Source of the DNA: a virus
Length of the DNA stretch: 22,239 nucleotides
Strand: one strand, 5' to 3'
IMG/VR virus record: IMGVR_UViG_3300044939_000362
Span: 1-22,239 of that record
Of this stretch, positions 1-17,282 are shown piece by piece. A program made the position numbers and the translations under genes. Every line of letters starts with the position of its first letter. Positions within the stretch are counted from its first letter, which is position 1. A model generated the notes under the pieces. The model was not told where the DNA came from. It made no database searches and was given only the letters and a program-made list of their open reading frames with translations.

Positions 1-275
1 CAGAGAGAAGTATAAATGGCTCCAAGCGAGCCATACAACAGGAGTGCACCGAAGCTGCGAGCGAGCCTAGGAGGAGGAGTATAAGCAAGCGAGCCGTGTT
101 TACGAGTACACTGGGAACACGAGCGAGCCATCAGAGCAGAGTACATCAGCTGAATCTAGCGAGCCAGACAACGGGAGGGTACCGGAAGGAGCCAGCGAGC
201 CATACAGTGGAGCATGCCAGGAGCAGAAGCGAGCCAATCAGGAAGAGAGCACCAATGGTTAAGAGCGAGTCAGGG
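1..275. repeat. degenerate two-box tandem repeat array, about 35-base period
   Basis: The core GCGAGCC occurs at 26, 61, 89, 123, 159, 195 and 229, with a variant GCGAGTC at 265. Spacings are 35, 28, 34, 36, 36, 34 and 36 bases. In each of the seven full units a second box, roughly GGAGTRYACC, starts 15-16 bases after the first. A second-box-like segment at 7-19 with no first box before it implies that the array continues beyond the left edge. Spacings are not consistently multiples of three, so this is unlikely to be a protein repeat. The units are too degenerate and the cores too short for a normal CRISPR array. It could be an iteron-like replication site, a packaging or regulatory binding array, or the source of a structured RNA. 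The function is unknown. Confidence 0.7.
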
Positions 276-343
276 TTGTGAGTATCCCCCGTGAAGCAGC
301 GCTGTTTATGATAGCCATTTGGAAGAGTACGAGGATGAGATCG

Positions 344-1171
344 ATGAGCGAGACGAAGTGGACTAACCTGCAGTGGACGGCGAAGTGGGCTGTCCGCGAT
401 GGGCACCAGAGTATGTCGGAGGATTTGTATGTCTTGTGCGAGATGCGCCGGCGCGTGCAAACCGATCGCATTCGGACCAACAACCGAATTGAGGCGATCA
501 AGCGAGGCGACAGTCGAATGTCTGAGCAGATGCTGACATGGCTCCAGGAAGAGTACTCACACTACATGGCTATGGAGCATCGCCTGACAGAGCGCATCAG
601 GGTGGTGGCGAAGGACCATCCCATGATTGCCAGGATGTGTCGGGTACCCGGCGTGGGGCCCGTGCTGGCGGCTATGCTGTATTCGTTGCTGGACATCTAC
701 AAAGCCCCCCATATCTCATCATTCTGGAAGTACTGTGGTATGGGGGTCGCGCCGGATGGCAAGGCAGATAGACTACAGAGGGGGACGAAGGCCAACTTCA
801 ACAGGAAGGCCAAGCAGGCCTGCTACCTCATCGCCATGTCTATCCTCAAGGCGCATGGGCGTCGCGAGAATCCATACGGCGCGCTGTATTACAAGATGCG
901 CGACCAGTATTCCGAGACAAGGCCAGGCTGGACAGAGGCTCATGTTCACTACGCAGCGCTGAGATATATGATCAAGCGCTTCCTGGCACATCTCTGGCTG
1001 GTGTGGCGTGAGGAAGAGGGCTTGCAGGTGCACCCGCCCTACGTGCAGGCACGCCTCGGACACACCCACATTGACTCACCCGCCGAGTACGGTTGGTACG
1101 CTGATGGTGAGTATATTCCGCCTGAGGATGACCTCTATGACGACGCAGTTGGAGACATAGATGGGCTATGA
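344..1171 (+). CDS. IS110-type transposase C-terminal domain protein, stand-alone
   Basis: This 275-residue protein resembles the C-terminal half (Transposase_20 family) of IS110/IS116/IS902 transposases. Residues about 25-90 are charged and helical, like the IS110 linker. A helix-hairpin-helix-like RVPGVGPVLAAM (100-111) follows, then FWKYCGMGVAP (127-137) and a basic segment ending in KAKQACYLIAMSILKA (155-170). The N-terminal RuvC-like DEDD nuclease domain is absent, and the serine-glycine segment usual after the GLxP-like motif is not visible, so it is probably not an active transposase. The start at 344 is chosen for the GAGGA 8 bases upstream; a GTG at 278 in the same frame would add 22 residues. 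It lies just after the two-box repeat array. A DNA- or RNA-binding role is inference only. Confidence 0.7.
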   Translation: MSETKWTNLQWTAKWAVRDGHQSMSEDLYVLCEMRRRVQTDRIRTNNRIEAIKRGDSRMSEQMLTWLQEEYSHYMAMEHRLTERIRVVAKDHPMIARMCRVPGVGPVLAAMLYSLLDIYKAPHISSFWKYCGMGVAPDGKADRLQRGTKANFNRKAKQACYLIAMSILKAHGRRENPYGALYYKMRDQYSETRPGWTEAHVHYAALRYMIKRFLAHLWLVWREEEGLQVHPPYVQARLGHTHIDSPAEYGWYADGEYIPPEDDLYDDAVGDIDGL

Positions 1172-1181
1172 GGATTGTTGA

Positions 1182-1418
1182 ATGAAGACGTGGTGGGAGC
1201 GTGCAGAAGATAATGCATTTGGTATTGTGGCCTATCTTTGCTATAACTCCTCAATACGCATTGTGGGGGATGGTGTCAAGAGCCACGGGTCCTATGTGAT
1301 GCGCTTGCCTTATAGTCGCAGGTCGCTGCGCATGAGGTCGGCGCTGGGTGGAGACTTACCTGATTGGTGGGAAGATCGACAGGATCAAGAGGTCAACGAG
1401 GGAGTTTGCTGTGAATGA
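1182..1418 (+). CDS. hypothetical protein, 78 aa
   Basis: I do not recognise this small protein. It starts at ATG 1182 with GAGGA about 7 bases upstream, overlapping the stop of the previous gene, and its end overlaps the GTG start of the DUF4417 gene by 8 bases. Tight spacing on both sides and the ribosome binding site support translation. It is rich in Trp, Arg and charged residues, with no signal peptide, membrane segment or cysteine cluster that I can see. The C-terminal part (from about residue 55) is mostly charged. No function can be assigned. Confidence 0.5.
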   Translation: MKTWWERAEDNAFGIVAYLCYNSSIRIVGDGVKSHGSYVMRLPYSRRSLRMRSALGGDLPDWWEDRQDQEVNEGVCCE

Positions 1419-2034
1419 GTATCGGGTCGCCTCTCCGCAGTACTCTCGGGATGATGTGCCGGACGCCATCTGGCCATCCAACAATGAGTATGGTATACCT
1501 ACACTGCTTACTAACCTGCAGGCTGAGAATCTGATCACTCCCGTACATGCTTGGGGAGAAGTGGCGAGATCGAGGTCCATGCTCGGCACCTGGCACTTCT
1601 ACGTAGACGATTATCGCTTCCGCCGGGTGTGGGCGCGACCCTATGAAGTCCTCAACACCAGCTGCGCAGCCTGCGTGGAGGTCAATTGGACGGTAACAGC
1701 CGAGATGCCGCGCGCAGTGCGCCTATTCCGCATCTACCAAAAGCGTTGGCTGGCGCGCTTCTGGCAGACGAAGGGCGTGCGCATATGGGCCGATGCTTCC
1801 GTGCCGCTCAACTGCCTGGATGATGCCCTGCTCGGCATCCCCCCCGGGTGGAAGGCATTTGCGGTGGGGGGCACATCGGCTGATGCGGAATATGTGCAGG
1901 ATATTGTCACGGAGTTGCGCCAGCGCTACGGCAATCCGATGATATGGATCGTCGGGGGCAGCGAGTCGGTGAAGAGGGTGGCGCTGGGTGAGTCTTGCCT
2001 GTGGACACCGGCAAGAAGGAGGAGAATGGTATGA
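1411..2034 (+). CDS. DUF4417 domain protein
   Basis: This 207-residue protein matches the DUF4417 family, common in phages and mobile elements and of unknown biochemical function. Recognisable parts are NEYGIPTL (25-32), the conserved WHFYVDDYRFRRVW (61-74), the MPRAVRLFRIYQKRW segment (99-113) followed by FWQTKGV (117-123), and a GIPPGW turn before a hydrophobic strand. The GTG start at 1411 is preferred because GAGGGAG lies about 6 bases upstream and the overlap with the previous gene is then only 8 bases. A GTG at 1348 would add 21 residues but bury the start far inside the upstream gene. Family assignment is confident; role is unknown. Confidence 0.75.
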   Translation: MNEYRVASPQYSRDDVPDAIWPSNNEYGIPTLLTNLQAENLITPVHAWGEVARSRSMLGTWHFYVDDYRFRRVWARPYEVLNTSCAACVEVNWTVTAEMPRAVRLFRIYQKRWLARFWQTKGVRIWADASVPLNCLDDALLGIPPGWKAFAVGGTSADAEYVQDIVTELRQRYGNPMIWIVGGSESVKRVALGESCLWTPARRRRMV

Positions 2035-2463: not shown

Positions 2464-2697
2464 TCACCCGGTCACGCGCAGGTTGCACCAACCTGCGCGG
2501 ACGCACAGGTCAATAGTCAACTGTGAGCCGTCCCACATGTGGACGGTCCATCGTTCTACGGAGTCGCGACGGCCATCGTCCCGGATTCGGCCCCAACCCT
2601 GGACCCTGACCAGGCCTAGGGCGAGGAGCGCGCGTAGGAATGCTCGCTCCTCCCGCCCCGTTTGATCCATTGGATCAAACGGAACCAGCTCTTCCAT
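2464..2697 (-). CDS. hypothetical protein, 77 aa
   Basis: This is an unrecognised small protein and the last gene of the leftward operon. The ATG at 2697 is chosen because it gives a 23-base overlap with the Toprim gene; an earlier start at 2793 would overlap it by almost 120 bases. No clear ribosome binding site is visible, so coupling to the upstream gene is likely if it is translated. The N-terminal half is helical and rich in Leu and Arg; the C-terminal half carries alternating hydrophobic residues (VERWTVHMWDGSQLTIDLCV) suggesting beta strands. The terminator at 2423-2456 follows directly. Confidence 0.45.
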   Translation of the reverse strand: MEELVPFDPMDQTGREERAFLRALLALGLVRVQGWGRIRDDGRRDSVERWTVHMWDGSQLTIDLCVRAGWCNLRVTG

Positions 2698-3517
2698 ACG
2701 ATACACTCTGCAGCGCCTGGAGCATGCACCTCCGCCGTACTGGAAGCGCGTCCCAGGGGTAGGGCGCACTCGACGCTGTGTCGCCACGTGCACGGCGTCC
2801 GCTGCGCGCGCGATCGCGCGTTACAACTGCGATGTGCGTGCCGTTGTCGTCACCGTGCGCCCCGTGGCCTGTGTTGTGCGCTGTGTACTCGACGGGCAGT
2901 GCCTGGAGCGTGCGCAGGAATGCGCTGCGGTCAAACTGGATGTCACACCACAGCGCATTACAGTCGTAGCCGGTGCGGGTGTCCGGGAGCGCGCGTACGG
3001 CAAACTCGATGTCGCTTGCGCGCAGCCTCGTCGCCAGCTTCCGTGCTGCACGCTTTCCGGACGCATCGCGGTCGCGCACATAATACACCGTGCGCACGCC
3101 CCACCCGCGCAGGATCTCAGCGACGTTGTCGGGTATTCGCAACTCTGTGTAGAAGCACGCAACGTTGTACAGACCAAGGGTGAACAGCGTCCACACGTCC
3201 ACAAAGCCACCCACCACCCACAGCGTTGCCGGGCGCATGTGCGCGATCCAGTCGCCGTGGTAGAGCACGAGGTCGGTCGGGAGCGTGGGCATGATGTACT
3301 TTGGCTTTGCAGCGCTGTTTGCATTCTTCCAGATCCGCAGCAGCGCCAGTCCGCGCGCGGCCGCGACGGGGAATGCGCAACCCGGCGCGCCGCGGCGCGC
3401 TTCGTACACAATCTTAAAGTTGCGGATTGCCGAATCGGTGATTCCCCGACGGCGCAGCCAGTCGAGGCCGTCATCCGGACGATCATGGTCACTGTTACAC
3501 TTTGTGTATATACTCAT
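2675..3517 (-). CDS. Toprim/DnaG-like primase domain protein, possibly degenerate
   Basis: This 280-residue protein resembles the catalytic core of DnaG-type primases without the zinc-binding domain. Residues 18-80 include WLRRRGITDSAIRNF and a KPKYIMP segment typical of the region before Toprim. The Toprim part has LWVVGGFVDVWTLFTLG (99-115), where the usual catalytic Glu of the EG motif appears to be Gly 103, and YYVRDRDASGKRAA (145-158), which keeps the DxD metal-binding pair. The last 60 residues are low in complexity and rich in Arg, Gly and His. The start at 3517 is set by AAGGAG 6 bases upstream. It follows the cysH-like gene by 90 bases on the same strand. It may be a phage replication protein or an accessory of the CRISPR operon; loss of the Glu raises doubt about primase activity. 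Confidence 0.7.
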   Translation of the reverse strand: MSIYTKCNSDHDRPDDGLDWLRRRGITDSAIRNFKIVYEARRGAPGCAFPVAAARGLALLRIWKNANSAAKPKYIMPTLPTDLVLYHGDWIAHMRPATLWVVGGFVDVWTLFTLGLYNVACFYTELRIPDNVAEILRGWGVRTVYYVRDRDASGKRAARKLATRLRASDIEFAVRALPDTRTGYDCNALWCDIQFDRSAFLRTLQALPVEYTAHNTGHGAHGDDNGTHIAVVTRDRARSGRRARGDTASSAPYPWDALPVRRRCMLQALQSVSYGRAGSV

Positions 3518-3607
3518 GATGTGCTCCTTCGCGGGTGCACCCCTTGCGCCCACCACATCTCAACAAAGCCATGCCCATGCCAGCGGGCACTGCTTGTTAC
3601 ACTGGCG

Positions 3608-4357
3608 TTAAAAATTTGCAACAACGGGGTTATCGGTGACGAAGGCGTTCCATAACTCCGGCCACAGGTGGCGGGTGGTCTCCAATAAGCCATACTGGTA
3701 GACGCGCACCGCCGTGAGTGGCCCAATGCGAGCGCGCTCGATGGGCATGCCCGCGTTGATCATCTGCGCGTAGGCGGGATGAATGGGGAGCTCATTCCCC
3801 ACGAGATAGGCGAAGACCTCTGGCGCGCTCCAATCGTGCAGCGGGGAGCAGTGCCAAAGCCCGTCCTGCGTCTTGCGCAGCGGTTTGCGCAGCGCGAAGC
3901 GTCGCCCTGTGCTCTCTTCTGCCCGTAACCCCATCGCAACCCCGTCGAATCCATAGTGCCCCACAATCTCGCCCCACGTGTCGGCCTCAAAGTCTACTGG
4001 GCGCGGATTGGAACACGTCGGCCAAGTGCCAAACTCGGCAAAGAATTCATCTGCGCTGCGGCGCTCTCGGACGCGCAAAATGTGGATGCCATAATGCTTC
4101 TCTGTGGCCTCCACCACCTCCAGCGTCCCAGGCGGCAGCCAGTCCTCATCATGGAAGACAACTTGGACCTCTGGACGTATGCGTAGCACAATGTCCACAA
4201 GACACTGGCTGTCTTTACCACCACTGTAGGCGACATAGGGGCGCTCCGTGCGGCGCAACAATGCGCGGACGAGGCGCTGTGCGCTGTTGACTCGGGCGCG
4301 CATTGGGGGCAGGCGCCAATGGAGCTTAGACATGGCCATTAAGGTATCGTAGTCCAT
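3608..4357 (-). CDS. cysH-like: CysH-like PAPS reductase-family PP-loop protein of type IV-B operon
   Basis: This 249-residue protein belongs to the PP-loop ATP pyrophosphatase / phosphoadenosine phosphosulfate reductase family. The PP-loop is AYSGGKDSQ (43-51), followed by VVFHDEDW, GLRAEES (about 163-169) and PLHDWSAPEVFAYL, the conserved PLxDW segment. The C-terminal ECGLH catalytic motif of true assimilatory PAPS reductases is absent, so sulfate reduction is unlikely; nucleotide-dependent modification of RNA or another substrate is possible but unproven. The start is one base after the csf3 stop (TGAGATG), so it is translationally coupled. A cysH-like gene is the characteristic accessory of type IV-B loci. 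Phages also carry unrelated PAPS-reductase-like genes, but this context favours the CRISPR link. Confidence 0.85.
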   Translation of the reverse strand: MDYDTLMAMSKLHWRLPPMRARVNSAQRLVRALLRRTERPYVAYSGGKDSQCLVDIVLRIRPEVQVVFHDEDWLPPGTLEVVEATEKHYGIHILRVRERRSADEFFAEFGTWPTCSNPRPVDFEADTWGEIVGHYGFDGVAMGLRAEESTGRRFALRKPLRKTQDGLWHCSPLHDWSAPEVFAYLVGNELPIHPAYAQMINAGMPIERARIGPLTAVRVYQYGLLETTRHLWPELWNAFVTDNPVVANF

Positions 4358-13898: not shown

Positions 13899-15083
13899 AT
13901 GAAGATATTGTGGCATAGTAACGGTCCCAACGTGCCCAGCGGTTACGGGGTACAGACTAAAATTTTTTGCAAACTTCTGGTAGAGGACGGTCACGATGTC
14001 ATTGTGTCTTGCAATTGCGGCTTACAGGGTATCCCGATGCGCTGGGAGGGCATGCTGATCCTACCCAGCACAGTAGATGAGGTGGGCAACGACAGCCTAA
14101 TAGCACATTATCTCGATAACTCTCCTGATGTCCTCCTCATCCTGTATGACGCGTGGCCATTCAATCCGGATGTGATCTCCCAGATACCCGTATCGCTGTG
14201 GGCCCCAATTGATCATCGCGAGGTACCGCCGCAGGTCGCCGACATCTTGCGGCTGGCGCGTCACCCAATCGCCATGAGCCGTCATGGTGAGCGGGCCATG
14301 CGCGCTGCAGGGGGCATTGACCCATTCTACGTTCCTCACGCTGTAGATACCGAGATCTATAAGCCGATAGACAGGCAGGAGGCTCGCAAGCGACTGGATG
14401 TTGGGAGCAACACATTCTTCGTCGTGGTCAACGGAGCCAACAAGGGTAATCGCAAGTCGCTGGAGCTCATCATTAAAGCATGGTCGATTTTTACAGAGCG
14501 CTACCATTACGATGGTATGCTTCTGTATATGCATTGTTATGCCGAGGCTACACACGGTATAGATTTACTGGCATGTGCTAAGTATTATGAGGTAGACCCC
14601 AAGACAATACGGTTTGCGAACTCATATCATTATGTTATGGGGCGCTTCTCCCCCCGCATTATGTGTGACCTGTATAACGCCGCTGACGTACTGCTACAAC
14701 CCTCGCGGGGTGAGGGTTTCGGCGTACCGCTCATTGAAGCGCAGGCGTGTGGTACCCCCGTCATCACCTGCGACGCTACGGCGATGAGTGAGCTCGTTGG
14801 GCCGGGGTATCTCATCGCTATAGATGCCATTGACGACTACATCTACACGCCAATGGGAGATGAGCAGGCCGAGCCGCCAGTGTCCCGGATTGTAGATGGC
14901 CTGGAGTGGGCGTATGCCCATAAAGGTAGCGAGCAATTGCGGTACAAAGCGCGTGCCTTCGCTATGGAATACGATAGCCAGTACGTATATAGCAAATACA
15001 TGAAGCCGGCACTGGAGTGGATGGCCGAGGTCAACAGGTCGGCAACTGGTACCGACGCAGTGATAGAGCATTATCCACAATGA
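13899..15083 (+). CDS. glycosyltransferase, GT4-like (GT-B fold)
   Basis: This 394-residue protein transfers a sugar from a nucleotide donor and resembles family GT4. The N-terminal Rossmann-like half begins MKILWHSNGPNVPSGYGVQ with the glycine-containing acceptor loop. The C-terminal donor-binding half has FFVVVNGANKGNRKSLEL (173-190), where the basic residues contact phosphate, and the E-x7-E motif E272-E280 in EGFGVPLIE, followed by ACGTPVIT. No signal peptide or membrane segment is visible, so it should act in the cytoplasm. It opens a four-gene cassette coupled by short overlaps. The acceptor could be a virion protein, DNA or a host glycan; none can be chosen from sequence. Confidence 0.85.
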   Translation: MKILWHSNGPNVPSGYGVQTKIFCKLLVEDGHDVIVSCNCGLQGIPMRWEGMLILPSTVDEVGNDSLIAHYLDNSPDVLLILYDAWPFNPDVISQIPVSLWAPIDHREVPPQVADILRLARHPIAMSRHGERAMRAAGGIDPFYVPHAVDTEIYKPIDRQEARKRLDVGSNTFFVVVNGANKGNRKSLELIIKAWSIFTERYHYDGMLLYMHCYAEATHGIDLLACAKYYEVDPKTIRFANSYHYVMGRFSPRIMCDLYNAADVLLQPSRGEGFGVPLIEAQACGTPVITCDATAMSELVGPGYLIAIDAIDDYIYTPMGDEQAEPPVSRIVDGLEWAYAHKGSEQLRYKARAFAMEYDSQYVYSKYMKPALEWMAEVNRSATGTDAVIEHYPQ

Positions 15084-15766
15084 CGGACATCGCTGTAGTA
15101 TCCGTATTCCGAGATAGTAGTACGTACCTGACACGTTATCTGATGCAGGTGCTGGGACTCAAGTCACACTTTGAGTATATCCACTTGGTATGGCTGGAGG
15201 GAGATAGTACAGATAACACGCTACACAGGCTACGAGCGGCAGCTAAGGAGATTGCAGATAGGCACCTGCATATTACGCTGGCAAAGTATGATTTTGGCGG
15301 GAGGCTGTGGCCATCACTAGACCATGCTGCACGCCTGCGACAGGTTGTGCACCTCTGGAATAAGGTAATGCAATATGTTCCCGCCTATGAATGGGTGTGT
15401 ATAGTGGTCAGTGAGCTCATATGGAGCGCAGATGTCGTCCCTAGGCTCATTGACCACGTGGCTCGAGGCCGGGCCGATGTTGTCTATCCGGCGCTATACA
15501 TCAAGGGTAGTAATCTGTGGTATGACACCAATACATTCCGCCTCGATGGAGAGCGATTCCTCACTCAACCGCCGTACCTGCCCCGACCCTTAACCGATGG
15601 GGAGCAACAGAATTGGCCGCTGGTCAAGGTGGACACAGGGGGCGGCATGATCATCGCGACCCGTGATAGGGTGAGTATGGCACATTGGCAGGGGAATTGT
15701 ATACTCACCTTCCCTGAAGATACTCGCTGCGTTGTTGACATGAGTGTACGGATAGAGCACCCATGA
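15080..15766 (+). CDS. glycosyltransferase-like protein, GT-A type (Anp1/GT62-like)
   Basis: This 228-residue protein starts at ATG 15080, overlapping the previous stop by 4 bases (ATGA). The N-terminus TDIAVVSVFRDSSTYLTRYLMQVLGL and WLEGDSTDNTL resemble the start of GT-A glycosyltransferases, particularly the Anp1/Mnn9 (GT62) group. A classical DxD motif is not obvious; SELIWSAD occupies its likely place, so metal use is uncertain. The C-terminal part has a VDTGGGMIIATRD segment typical of the acceptor side. It is cytoplasmic, with no membrane segment. Assignment rests on fold-level resemblance plus the neighbouring glycosyltransferases. Confidence 0.7.
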   Translation: MTDIAVVSVFRDSSTYLTRYLMQVLGLKSHFEYIHLVWLEGDSTDNTLHRLRAAAKEIADRHLHITLAKYDFGGRLWPSLDHAARLRQVVHLWNKVMQYVPAYEWVCIVVSELIWSADVVPRLIDHVARGRADVVYPALYIKGSNLWYDTNTFRLDGERFLTQPPYLPRPLTDGEQQNWPLVKVDTGGGMIIATRDRVSMAHWQGNCILTFPEDTRCVVDMSVRIEHP

Positions 15767-16668
15767 AGATCGCCGTCTTCTCGGATACACGACTACCCAC
15801 CTCGCACGACTATGGCGGTCACGGCTTGGGCCACTCTGTGTTGCAATTGGCGGAAGGGTTGGCCGACAGGGGGCACGATGTCACACTCTTTGCGGGCCCT
15901 GGCTCCTCTACCGAGTTGCGACTCATTGTCCGGGGCAGCGAGGATGACTTTGTGCCGTATGTGGAGCGCTTTGATGCAGTGCTGGACTCCGGTCACAATC
16001 ACCAAGCATCCAAGATTTATCCAGATGCTCCTATCGTTAATCGCTGTGCCGACATCGAGACTGACCCTGGCCCTAACGCCATATTCTTGTCAGAGTCTGA
16101 TAGGAGACACTTCCGGAGACATACCAACACCGGCAGGGTCATACATACGGGCATAAAGGCCCCGGCACATCGCATGACGAGAGACAAGCATCCTTACGTC
16201 ACCTATATGGGTGGATTCTGGGCCGGGAAGCAGGTTGTCATATGTATTGAGGCTGCGAGACTGGCCGGGGTCAAGATCAAGCTGGCAGGCCCCCCTTTAC
16301 CCAGCGCGCCGATAAGTTACAAGCATGTCGAGTATGTGGGGCCGGTGTATGGAGACGCTAAGTGGAACTTCTTGATGCGGTCATCCGTGCATCTTGTGCC
16401 TATTGGCATCAGATCGGCACTCGAGGCCCAGTCATGTGGCACACCGGTACTGACCACGCCGTACCGAGGTATGCCGGAGTACATTGCGCCCGGTACGTCT
16501 GGGTACATTGTGAGAGACATTATCGAGATGGCCGAGCACATCGGGTTGGCGATGCAGTTAGATCCTGAGAATGTGTACAGGTACATCGTGGATAATCACT
16601 CGTTTGAGAGAATGCTAGATCTGTATGAGGCGGCACTCATGGACGTTGTCCAGGGAATGAGATGGTAG
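15763..16668 (+). CDS. glycosyltransferase, GT4-like
   Basis: This 301-residue GT-B protein starts in a 4-base overlap with the upstream stop. The N-terminal part has MKIAVFSDTRLPTSHDYGGHGLGHSV with the glycine-rich acceptor loop, and LAEGLADRGHDVTLFAGPG, a typical GT4 first helix and strand. The donor half has YVTYMGGFWAGKQ (145-157) and SALEAQSCGTPVLTTPYRGMPEYI, containing the second Glu of the E-x7-E motif (E221). The first Glu appears to be replaced (Pro 213 by position), which may change donor handling. It is shorter than most GT4 enzymes (usually about 350-400 residues). It overlaps the methyltransferase gene by 7 bases. Confidence 0.82.
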   Translation: MKIAVFSDTRLPTSHDYGGHGLGHSVLQLAEGLADRGHDVTLFAGPGSSTELRLIVRGSEDDFVPYVERFDAVLDSGHNHQASKIYPDAPIVNRCADIETDPGPNAIFLSESDRRHFRRHTNTGRVIHTGIKAPAHRMTRDKHPYVTYMGGFWAGKQVVICIEAARLAGVKIKLAGPPLPSAPISYKHVEYVGPVYGDAKWNFLMRSSVHLVPIGIRSALEAQSCGTPVLTTPYRGMPEYIAPGTSGYIVRDIIEMAEHIGLAMQLDPENVYRYIVDNHSFERMLDLYEAALMDVVQGMRW

Positions 16669-17282
16669 ATTGGCGCGACGAGGCGTTGGTTGCGCTCAAT
16701 ACACAGGAGGCTCTTGATAAATTCTGGGCGCGCAAGAGCGTAAGAGATGGATACTTCACACCAATGCGCCTGTCATATTATGACAGAGTGGCGTCCTACC
16801 TTGAATTGAGCATTGATGATATGGACGACCCGATTAAAGTGTGCGATGTGGGATGTGGCCCAGGGTACATGCTAGCGGCGCTCAGTAGGCACTACCCTGA
16901 GCGCCACTTTGTTCTACACGGCGTAGACTGGTCACGGTCTGCCATCCGCTGGGCCAGGGAGGTGTGCCCGGATGCGACGTATCATGTTGCAAATATTACA
17001 CATGGCTTAGATATACACGACGTGGACATTGTCTTGTCCCTGCAGACGTTGGAGTATATTGTCGAATGGCGACAGGCTTTGGACAACATGATGGCGATGC
17101 TCCGACGAGGTGGAGAGTTAGTAATCACTGTGCCTGATGGCCGATATGACAGCTGGGAAGGCCATGTTAATAGGTGGACGGCAGATGACTTATTAACACT
17201 GCTCAAACCATACGGTTGCCGGCTGGTCTGGCAATTCACATCCACACAACCTATGATCCTGGCTCACATGATTAAGGTGTAG
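16662..17282 (+). CDS. SAM-dependent class I methyltransferase
   Basis: This 206-residue protein carries the seven-strand Rossmann methyltransferase signatures: motif I VCDVGCGPGYML (60-71) for SAM binding, acidic motif II GVDWS (87-91), an IVLSLQTLEYI motif IV-like segment, and GGELVITVPDG after it. The family includes UbiE/SmtA-type small-molecule methyltransferases. As the last gene of the cassette it probably methylates the sugar made or attached by the glycosyltransferases, but DNA or protein targets are not excluded. No target-recognition domain of a DNA methylase is present. The start overlaps the upstream stop. Confidence 0.85.
   Translation: MVDWRDEALVALNTQEALDKFWARKSVRDGYFTPMRLSYYDRVASYLELSIDDMDDPIKVCDVGCGPGYMLAALSRHYPERHFVLHGVDWSRSAIRWAREVCPDATYHVANITHGLDIHDVDIVLSLQTLEYIVEWRQALDNMMAMLRRGGELVITVPDGRYDSWEGHVNRWTADDLLTLLKPYGCRLVWQFTSTQPMILAHMIKV

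What the first reader, a model, noticed from the sequence alone, without database searches (positions are those of the whole stretch)
1..275. Degenerate 34-36-base two-box repeat array at the left edge
Eight GCGAGCC-like cores, seven with a second GGAGTRYACC-like box at a fixed offset of 15-16 bases, recur with near-constant period and continue off the window. This fits no standard element: too degenerate for CRISPR, not in coding register, and not simple sequence. It could be a replication or packaging site, a regulator-binding array, or the template of an RNA. Its period is near that of a guide unit, and the type IV-B operon here has no array, but linking the two is speculation.
Basis: seen in the sequence. 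Interest (0 to 1): 0.6.

Follow-up and report, generated by a model that had tools for sequence, protein, structure and literature searches.

The report
TIGR guide-RNA array beside TasA
The odd repeat at the left edge is a TIGR array, a recently described kind of RNA-guide store, next to the gene for its RNA-binding partner TasA in a phage genome; the system is known, but this phage also carries an array-less type IV-B CRISPR system, which is the unusual part.

Summary
The repeats are real and more than chance. [quoted passage not shown] One unit is broken (28 nt). The array starts off the left contig end and closes with a 3'-truncated edge (AGCG, 298-301). The gene immediately downstream (ATG at 344, to 1171) encodes a solo Nop-domain TasA: NCBIfam TIGR_Tas_endo at E=1e-51, a model with Z=22.9 to solved TasH, and no HNH or RuvC nuclease. 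The edge repeat is the same as in the experimentally studied Salicola phage CGphi29 array and in most Tas-linked arrays I fetched. By homology, the transcript should be cut into ~36-nt tigRNAs that guide a TasA dimer to DNA, one spacer pairing to each strand, without cleavage. The phage also encodes a type IV-B CRISPR operon without an array. Two of 27 other type IV-B phage contigs also carry TIGR-TasA, against 0 of 80 random viral contigs (p about 0.06), which is suggestive only. No target was found. Verdict: new member of a known kind.

The parts
1..24 (+). partial first visible unit: end of spacer A (1-8), degenerate loop AGTATAAAT (9-17), short spacer B (18-24); array continues off the contig
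   Evidence: sequence; register set by the edge at 25
25..59 (+). TIGR unit 1: edge AGCGAGCCA, spacer A TACAACAGG, loop AGTGCACCG, spacer B AAGCTGCG (35 nt)
60..87 (+). unit 2, broken: edge AGCGAGCCT, loop AGTATAAGC, spacer B almost absent (28 nt)
88..121 (+). unit 3: edge AGCGAGCCG, A TGTTTACG, loop AGTACACTG, B GGAACACG (34 nt)
122..157 (+). unit 4: edge AGCGAGCCA, A TCAGAGCAG, loop AGTACATCA, B GCTGAATCT (36 nt, 9/9/9/9)
158..193 (+). unit 5: edge AGCGAGCCA, A GACAACGGG, loop AGGGTACCG, B GAAGGAGCC (36 nt)
194..227 (+). unit 6: edge AGCGAGCCA, A TACAGTGG, loop AGCATGCCA, B GGAGCAGA (34 nt)
228..263 (+). unit 7: edge AGCGAGCCA, A ATCAGGAAG, loop AGAGCACCA, B ATGGTTAAG (36 nt)
   Evidence: loop equals the L012 array loop GAGAGCACCA
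264..297 (+). unit 8: edge AGCGAGTCA, A GGGTTGTG, loop AGTATCCCC, B CGTGAAGC (34 nt)
298..301 (+). 3'-truncated edge repeat AGCG closing the array
   Evidence: sequence; [quoted passage not shown]
344..1171 (+). tasA: solo Nop-domain TIGR-associated protein, 275 aa (frame open from GTG 278; ATG 344 preferred because GAGG lies at 331-334 and the homologous region starts there)
   Evidence: NCBIfam NF052498 1.4e-51; PDB TasH 1.5e-22 and TasR 1.1e-19; AlphaFold2 model pLDDT 83, Foldseek E 7e-13, VIA Z 22.9 to TasH

Best explanation
This is the 3' part of a TIGR array, followed by its tasA gene on the same strand. The array is transcribed rightward, probably together with tasA since no terminator lies between them. 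With TasA bound, an unidentified host RNase cuts the transcript in the middle of each edge repeat (AGCG|AGCC), giving ~36-nt tigRNAs: half edge, spacer A, loop, spacer B, half edge. A TasA dimer holds each tigRNA by the matching AG (box D) and CC(A) (box C) motifs of edge and loop. It opens a DNA site of the form spacerA-(0-2 nt)-reverse complement of spacerB, with one spacer pairing to each strand, and bends it. TasA has no nuclease, so the outcome is binding (roadblock, silencing or recruitment), not cutting. Shown here: array anatomy, homology and fold of TasA, and conservation of the edge repeat beside other tas genes. Inferred from published TIGR-Tas work: processing, dimer geometry and DNA targeting. 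Unknown: targets and the benefit to the phage (competition with other elements or host silencing is most likely).
For: The edge repeat is the same as in the experimentally studied Salicola phage CGphi29 (SpTIGR/TasH) array (AAGCGAGCCA, loop AAGACAACCA, period 36) and near-identical in Microcystis phage Mvi-JY20 (ATGCGAGCC / ACGAAACCC), each beside its tas gene. 14 of 20 IMG/VR loci found through TasA carry period-36 arrays, most with GCGAGC[CT]-type edges. The joint two-box scan gives 7 units in the array, 0 elsewhere, and at most 1 in shuffles. Units 4, 5 and 7 are exactly 9/9/9/9 = 36 nt. Box D/box C agree between edge and loop, as the paper says they should. TasA: NF052498 E 1.4e-51, above its cut-off; TasH/TasR as best PDB sequence and fold matches; only about 20 residues precede the coiled coil, so there is no room for HNH or RuvC. 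Mechanism from PMC12045711.
Against: The array is less regular than most: spacers of 8 or 9 nt, unit periods of 34-36, one 28-nt unit, two degenerate loops, variable loop centre. It could be decaying or only partly active. No transcript data exist. No spacer pair has a target in the window, and none in the fetched loci that stands convincingly above shuffled pairings. No terminator and no convincing promoter are visible; the promoter would lie off the contig. TasA was assigned by homology only.
Confidence: 0.9

Rival explanations
1. The TIGR array is a decaying relic: repeats remain recognisable but units with broken loops or lengths no longer give working tigRNAs.
For: 28-nt unit 2, loops AGTATAAAT and AGTATAAGC without box C, final edge GCGAGTC, spacers 8-9 nt.
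Against: Three units are perfect 36-mers and five edges are perfect AGCGAGCCA; tasA is intact with a confident Nop model. Characterised and relative arrays also contain odd units (37-39 nt, altered boxes).
Confidence: 0.12
2. The array supplies guides to, or works jointly with, the array-less type IV-B Csf complex encoded 3-7 kb away.
For: Type IV-B generally lacks its own array and its natural guide RNA is unknown (PMC7937560). TIGR-TasA also occurs in 2 of 27 other type IV-B phage contigs, once with TasA and two arrays directly upstream of csf1 on the same strand, against 0 of 80 random viral contigs.
Against: 25 of 27 type IV-B contigs have no tas gene and no TIGR array was seen near their csf genes. 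The enrichment is not significant (Fisher p about 0.06) and controls are unmatched. TIGR units carry boxes for a Nop protein, which is present, and none of 20 TasA-bearing contigs had a close Csf2.
Confidence: 0.04
3. DNA-level repeat (iteron-like origin, packaging site or regulator-binding array).
For: Short direct repeats in a phage genome, some kilobases from the packaging genes.
Against: Two alternating boxes with unconserved fixed-length spacers, the same edge repeats beside unrelated phages' tas genes, terminase about 6.7 kb away, tas gene adjacent.
Confidence: 0.01
4. Ordinary coding sequence of an Arg/Ser-rich protein (open frame 3-281).
For: Frame 3-281 is open off the contig end.
Against: The unit period is not a multiple of 3 throughout (35, 28, 34 shift the frame), spacers are unconserved, and Tas-linked arrays in other phages are the same repeat.
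Confidence: 0.01

Closest known systems
TIGR-TasH of Salicola phage CGphi29 (SpTIGR; PMC12045711, HQ634153)
   Same: Same edge repeat (AGCGAGCCA), period 36, homologous Nop domain (29% identity), tailed phage
   Different: SpTIGR has an N-terminal HNH nuclease and its array lies downstream of tas; here no nuclease, array upstream, loop AGTRYACC instead of AGACAACC, less regular spacing
TIGR-TasA systems (e.g. FpTasA of Flavonifractor plautii, described in PMC12045711)
   Same: Solo Nop-domain protein with dual-repeat array; TasA binds 36-nt RNA without a nuclease
   Different: No ParB-like partner seen here; neighbour DUF4417 and a type IV-B csf operon
Tas locus of IMGVR_UViG_3300022554_000318 (L041/L045) and Microcystis phage Mvi-JY20 (PP438412)
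   Same: Nearest tas genes found (39-40% and 33-35% identity), same edge repeat; L041 also carries type IV-B csf genes
   Different: Arrays downstream of tasA; loops GAAAACCA-like or CGAAACCC
IS110 bridge-RNA recombinases (IS621, ISCro4)
   Same: Related Nop-like C-terminal domain (VIA Z about 15; Pfam Transposase_20 weak)
   Different: No DEDD RuvC domain and no element ends sought or seen; scores far below TasH/TasR

Membership tests
TIGR-Tas system (TasA type) | Two alternating repeats (edge, loop) of 8-12 nt separated by about 9-nt variable spacers, unit about 36 nt | tested here: met
   7 units; edge and loop conserved, spacers not; spacers 8-9 nt, units 34-36 nt, one 28-nt unit
TIGR-Tas system (TasA type) | Array adjacent to a gene for a Nop-domain Tas protein | tested here: met
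   ORF 344-1171, NF052498 1.4e-51, about 42 nt after the array
TIGR-Tas system (TasA type) | Box D and box C motifs shared between edge and loop | tested here: met
   AG...CC(A) in both
[quoted passage not shown]
   AGCG at 298-301
TIGR-Tas system (TasA type) | Rho-independent terminator after the array (typical, not defining) | tested here: not met
   None on + strand in 1-1400; a typical rather than defining trait, and this array lies upstream of tasA
TIGR-Tas system (TasA type) | Nop fold of the Tas protein, no nuclease domain (TasA) | tested here: met
   Model pLDDT 83; Z 22.9 to TasH, 21.1 to TasR, match begins at residue 13-22; no HNH motif in alignment
TIGR-Tas system (TasA type) | Transcription and processing to 36-nt tigRNA bound by Tas | not testable with these tools
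   needs small RNA sequencing
TIGR-Tas system (TasA type) | tigRNA-guided tandem-spacer binding of DNA | not testable with these tools
   target search in held sequence gave nothing convincing against shuffled pairs
CRISPR array | Single conserved repeat of about 25-36 nt with spacers of like size | tested here: not met
   Two short repeats with 8-9-nt spacers
IS110 family transposon | N-terminal DEDD RuvC-like domain plus Tnp_20 domain | tested here: not met
   NF033542 29.7 bits against a 140 cut-off, C-terminal part only; only about 20 residues before the coiled coil

The most novel reading that the evidence does not exclude
Phage type IV-B complexes, which have no array, use or cooperate with tigRNAs/TasA, so that TIGR arrays are a natural guide source or partner for type IV-B in some phages.
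Probability: 0.04. Interest if true: 0.85.

Novelty: new member of a known kind. Interest (0 to 1): 0.35.

Why it matters
It places a nuclease-free TIGR-TasA system in a tailed phage that also carries a type IV-B CRISPR operon with CysH. Both are RNA-guided modules of unknown purpose on mobile elements, and two other phages share the pair. That gives concrete loci in which to look for TasA targets and for any link with type IV-B. It also shows that the edge repeat GCGAGCCA recurs across many tas-linked arrays and can be used to find unannotated TIGR systems, such as that of Microcystis phage Mvi-JY20.

Tried and rejected
Exact-peptide scan with TasA alone found no relatives; the alignment query did. 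Whole-window DNA has no near relative among phages (first 10 kb). Relatives cannot be drawn for a virus record. Rfam has no match in 1-1300. Folding of single 36-nt units is no more stable than shuffles, as expected for TIGR units. A target search with geometry A-(0-2)-rc(B), derived from the published 8-nt 3' overhangs, and the reverse geometry as control, in the window and fetched loci: the window units gave 5 hits with 2 mismatches, four of them to the short unit 8, none in the window itself, against about 1.2 expected from shuffled pairings; I do not trust this excess because it rests on one unit with two 8-nt spacers and on unrelated contigs. The 12-mer GTTGTGAGTATC shared by the last units of this array and of L041 looked like a conserved terminal element, but a scan with relaxed spacing found only L041's own contig plus 19 other contigs, a number not above a rough chance estimate; I did not inspect those for arrays. 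Left extension of the contig by an exact 22-mer: none in viral contigs. The tree of Tas proteins does not resolve whether the three type IV-B-linked TasA form a clade. L025's G-rich repeat is not a TIGR array. My notebook entry '17/20 loci with arrays' was a miscount; the figure is 14/20.

Full report
Observation. The region was re-read and parsed. Eight edge-like cores start at 25, 60, 88, 122, 158, 194, 228 and 264. Taking the edge as AGCGAGCCA, units 4, 5 and 7 divide exactly into 9+9+9+9 = 36 nt. Units 1, 3, 6 and 8 have 8-nt spacers in one or both places and measure 34-35 nt. Unit 2 is broken (28 nt). A partial unit lies at 1-24, so the array starts beyond the contig. Unit 8 is followed by AGCG (298-301), half an edge repeat. 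Edge columns average 1.87 bits, loop columns 1.18 and spacers 0.44-0.45. A joint scan for edge plus loop finds seven units here, none elsewhere in the window and never more than one in 20,000 shuffles. The periodicity test agrees.

Identity. The ORF after the array (frame 278-1171, likely start ATG 344) matches the NCBIfam equivalog TIGR_Tas_endo at 1.4e-51 (175.6 bits, cut-off 100), while IS110 transposase reaches only 29.7 bits. The best solved relatives are TasH (1.5e-22) and TasR (1.1e-19). An AlphaFold2 model from 17 sequences (pLDDT 83) matches TasH with Z 22.9 over 231 residues and TasR with Z 21.1 over 198, IS110-family recombinases at about 15, and Prp31 and SSU-processome chains of the snoRNP kind at about 8-9. 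Only about 20 low-confidence residues precede the coiled coil, so neither HNH nor RuvC is present: this is TasA.

The array matches the published TIGR anatomy (PMC12045711): two alternating repeats of 8-12 nt, 9-nt spacers, 36-nt units, boxes shared by edge and loop, closing truncated edge. The strongest independent support is comparative. Searching with the protein, not the repeat, brought in phage loci whose neighbouring DNA holds the same edge repeat. Salicola phage CGphi29, the experimentally studied SpTIGR, has AAGCGAGCCA/AAGACAACCA; Microcystis phage Mvi-JY20 has ATGCGAGCC/ACGAAACCC. 14 of 20 IMG/VR loci carry period-36 arrays, most with GCGAGCCA-type edges. One of them (L012) has the loop GAGAGCACCA, the same as unit 7 here.

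Mechanism. From the published work, the precursor is cut mid-edge into 36-nt tigRNAs when Tas is present, a Tas dimer grips the matching boxes of edge and loop, and spacers A and B pair with opposite strands of an adjoining or nearly adjoining site. By homology the same is expected here, with binding and bending but no cutting. Steps shown here are anatomy, homology and fold; processing and targeting are inferred. The reported 8-nt 3' overhangs imply the target order spacerA-gap-rc(spacerB) (my derivation). No such target was found in the window, and none in the fetched loci that is convincing against shuffled pairings.

Neighbourhood. The window is a whole 22,239-base virus record, a linear fragment. 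It encodes DUF4417, a toprim protein, a complete type IV-B operon on the minus strand (CysH 3608-4357, Csf3, Csf2, Cas11, Csf1 up to 7089), then terminase, portal, capsid and tape measure. Type IV-B systems usually lack an array and their guide is unknown (PMC7937560, PMC10848311), so a guide array nearby invites a link. Csf2 relatives gave 27 viral contigs. Two of them carry TIGR-TasA. In IMGVR_UViG_3300022554_000318 tasA and two arrays lie directly upstream of csf1 on the same strand. In IMGVR_UViG_3300033233_000061 tasA and its array lie about 7 kb from csf1. None of 80 random viral contigs has a Tas gene. Fisher's exact p is about 0.06 by hand, with unmatched controls, so the association is only a lead. 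Against it, 25 of 27 type IV-B contigs have none, and the array has its own effector. No held paper was found that treats the pair together.

Verdict. The finding is a TIGR array of a TIGR-TasA system: a new member of a known kind, somewhat irregular, in a phage that also has type IV-B.

Noticed in passing
L041 3217-4550 (IMGVR_UViG_3300022554_000318): tasA followed by two TIGR arrays separated by a small ORF, directly upstream of csf1-cas11-csf2 on the same strand: the tightest TIGR/type IV-B neighbourhood seen.
   Followed up: partly
window 275-286 and L041 4105-4116: The last units of both arrays share the 12-mer GTTGTGAGTATC (end of spacer A plus loop) though the proteins are only 39% identical; not clearly conserved elsewhere.
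   Followed up: partly
L002 5740-6075 (Microcystis phage Mvi-JY20, PP438412): Unannotated TIGR array with truncated edge and terminator after a tas gene annotated as hypothetical protein XAI95461.1.
   Followed up: partly
window 2678-3556, minus strand: Toprim protein with weak similarity to DnaG primase and to the PADLOC model RTasDnaG-like, between DUF4417 and CysH.
   Followed up: no
window 1348-2031: DUF4417 protein (PHROG annotated nuclease) just after tasA, same strand; possible partner.
   Followed up: no
window 13899-17282: Four ORFs between capsid and tail genes that read like glycosyltransferases and a methyltransferase (sequence impression only).
   Followed up: no
L016 8872-9417: Tas-linked array with a divergent edge (CAGTGAATCA) and loop (ACACCCA), still period 36.
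   Followed up: no
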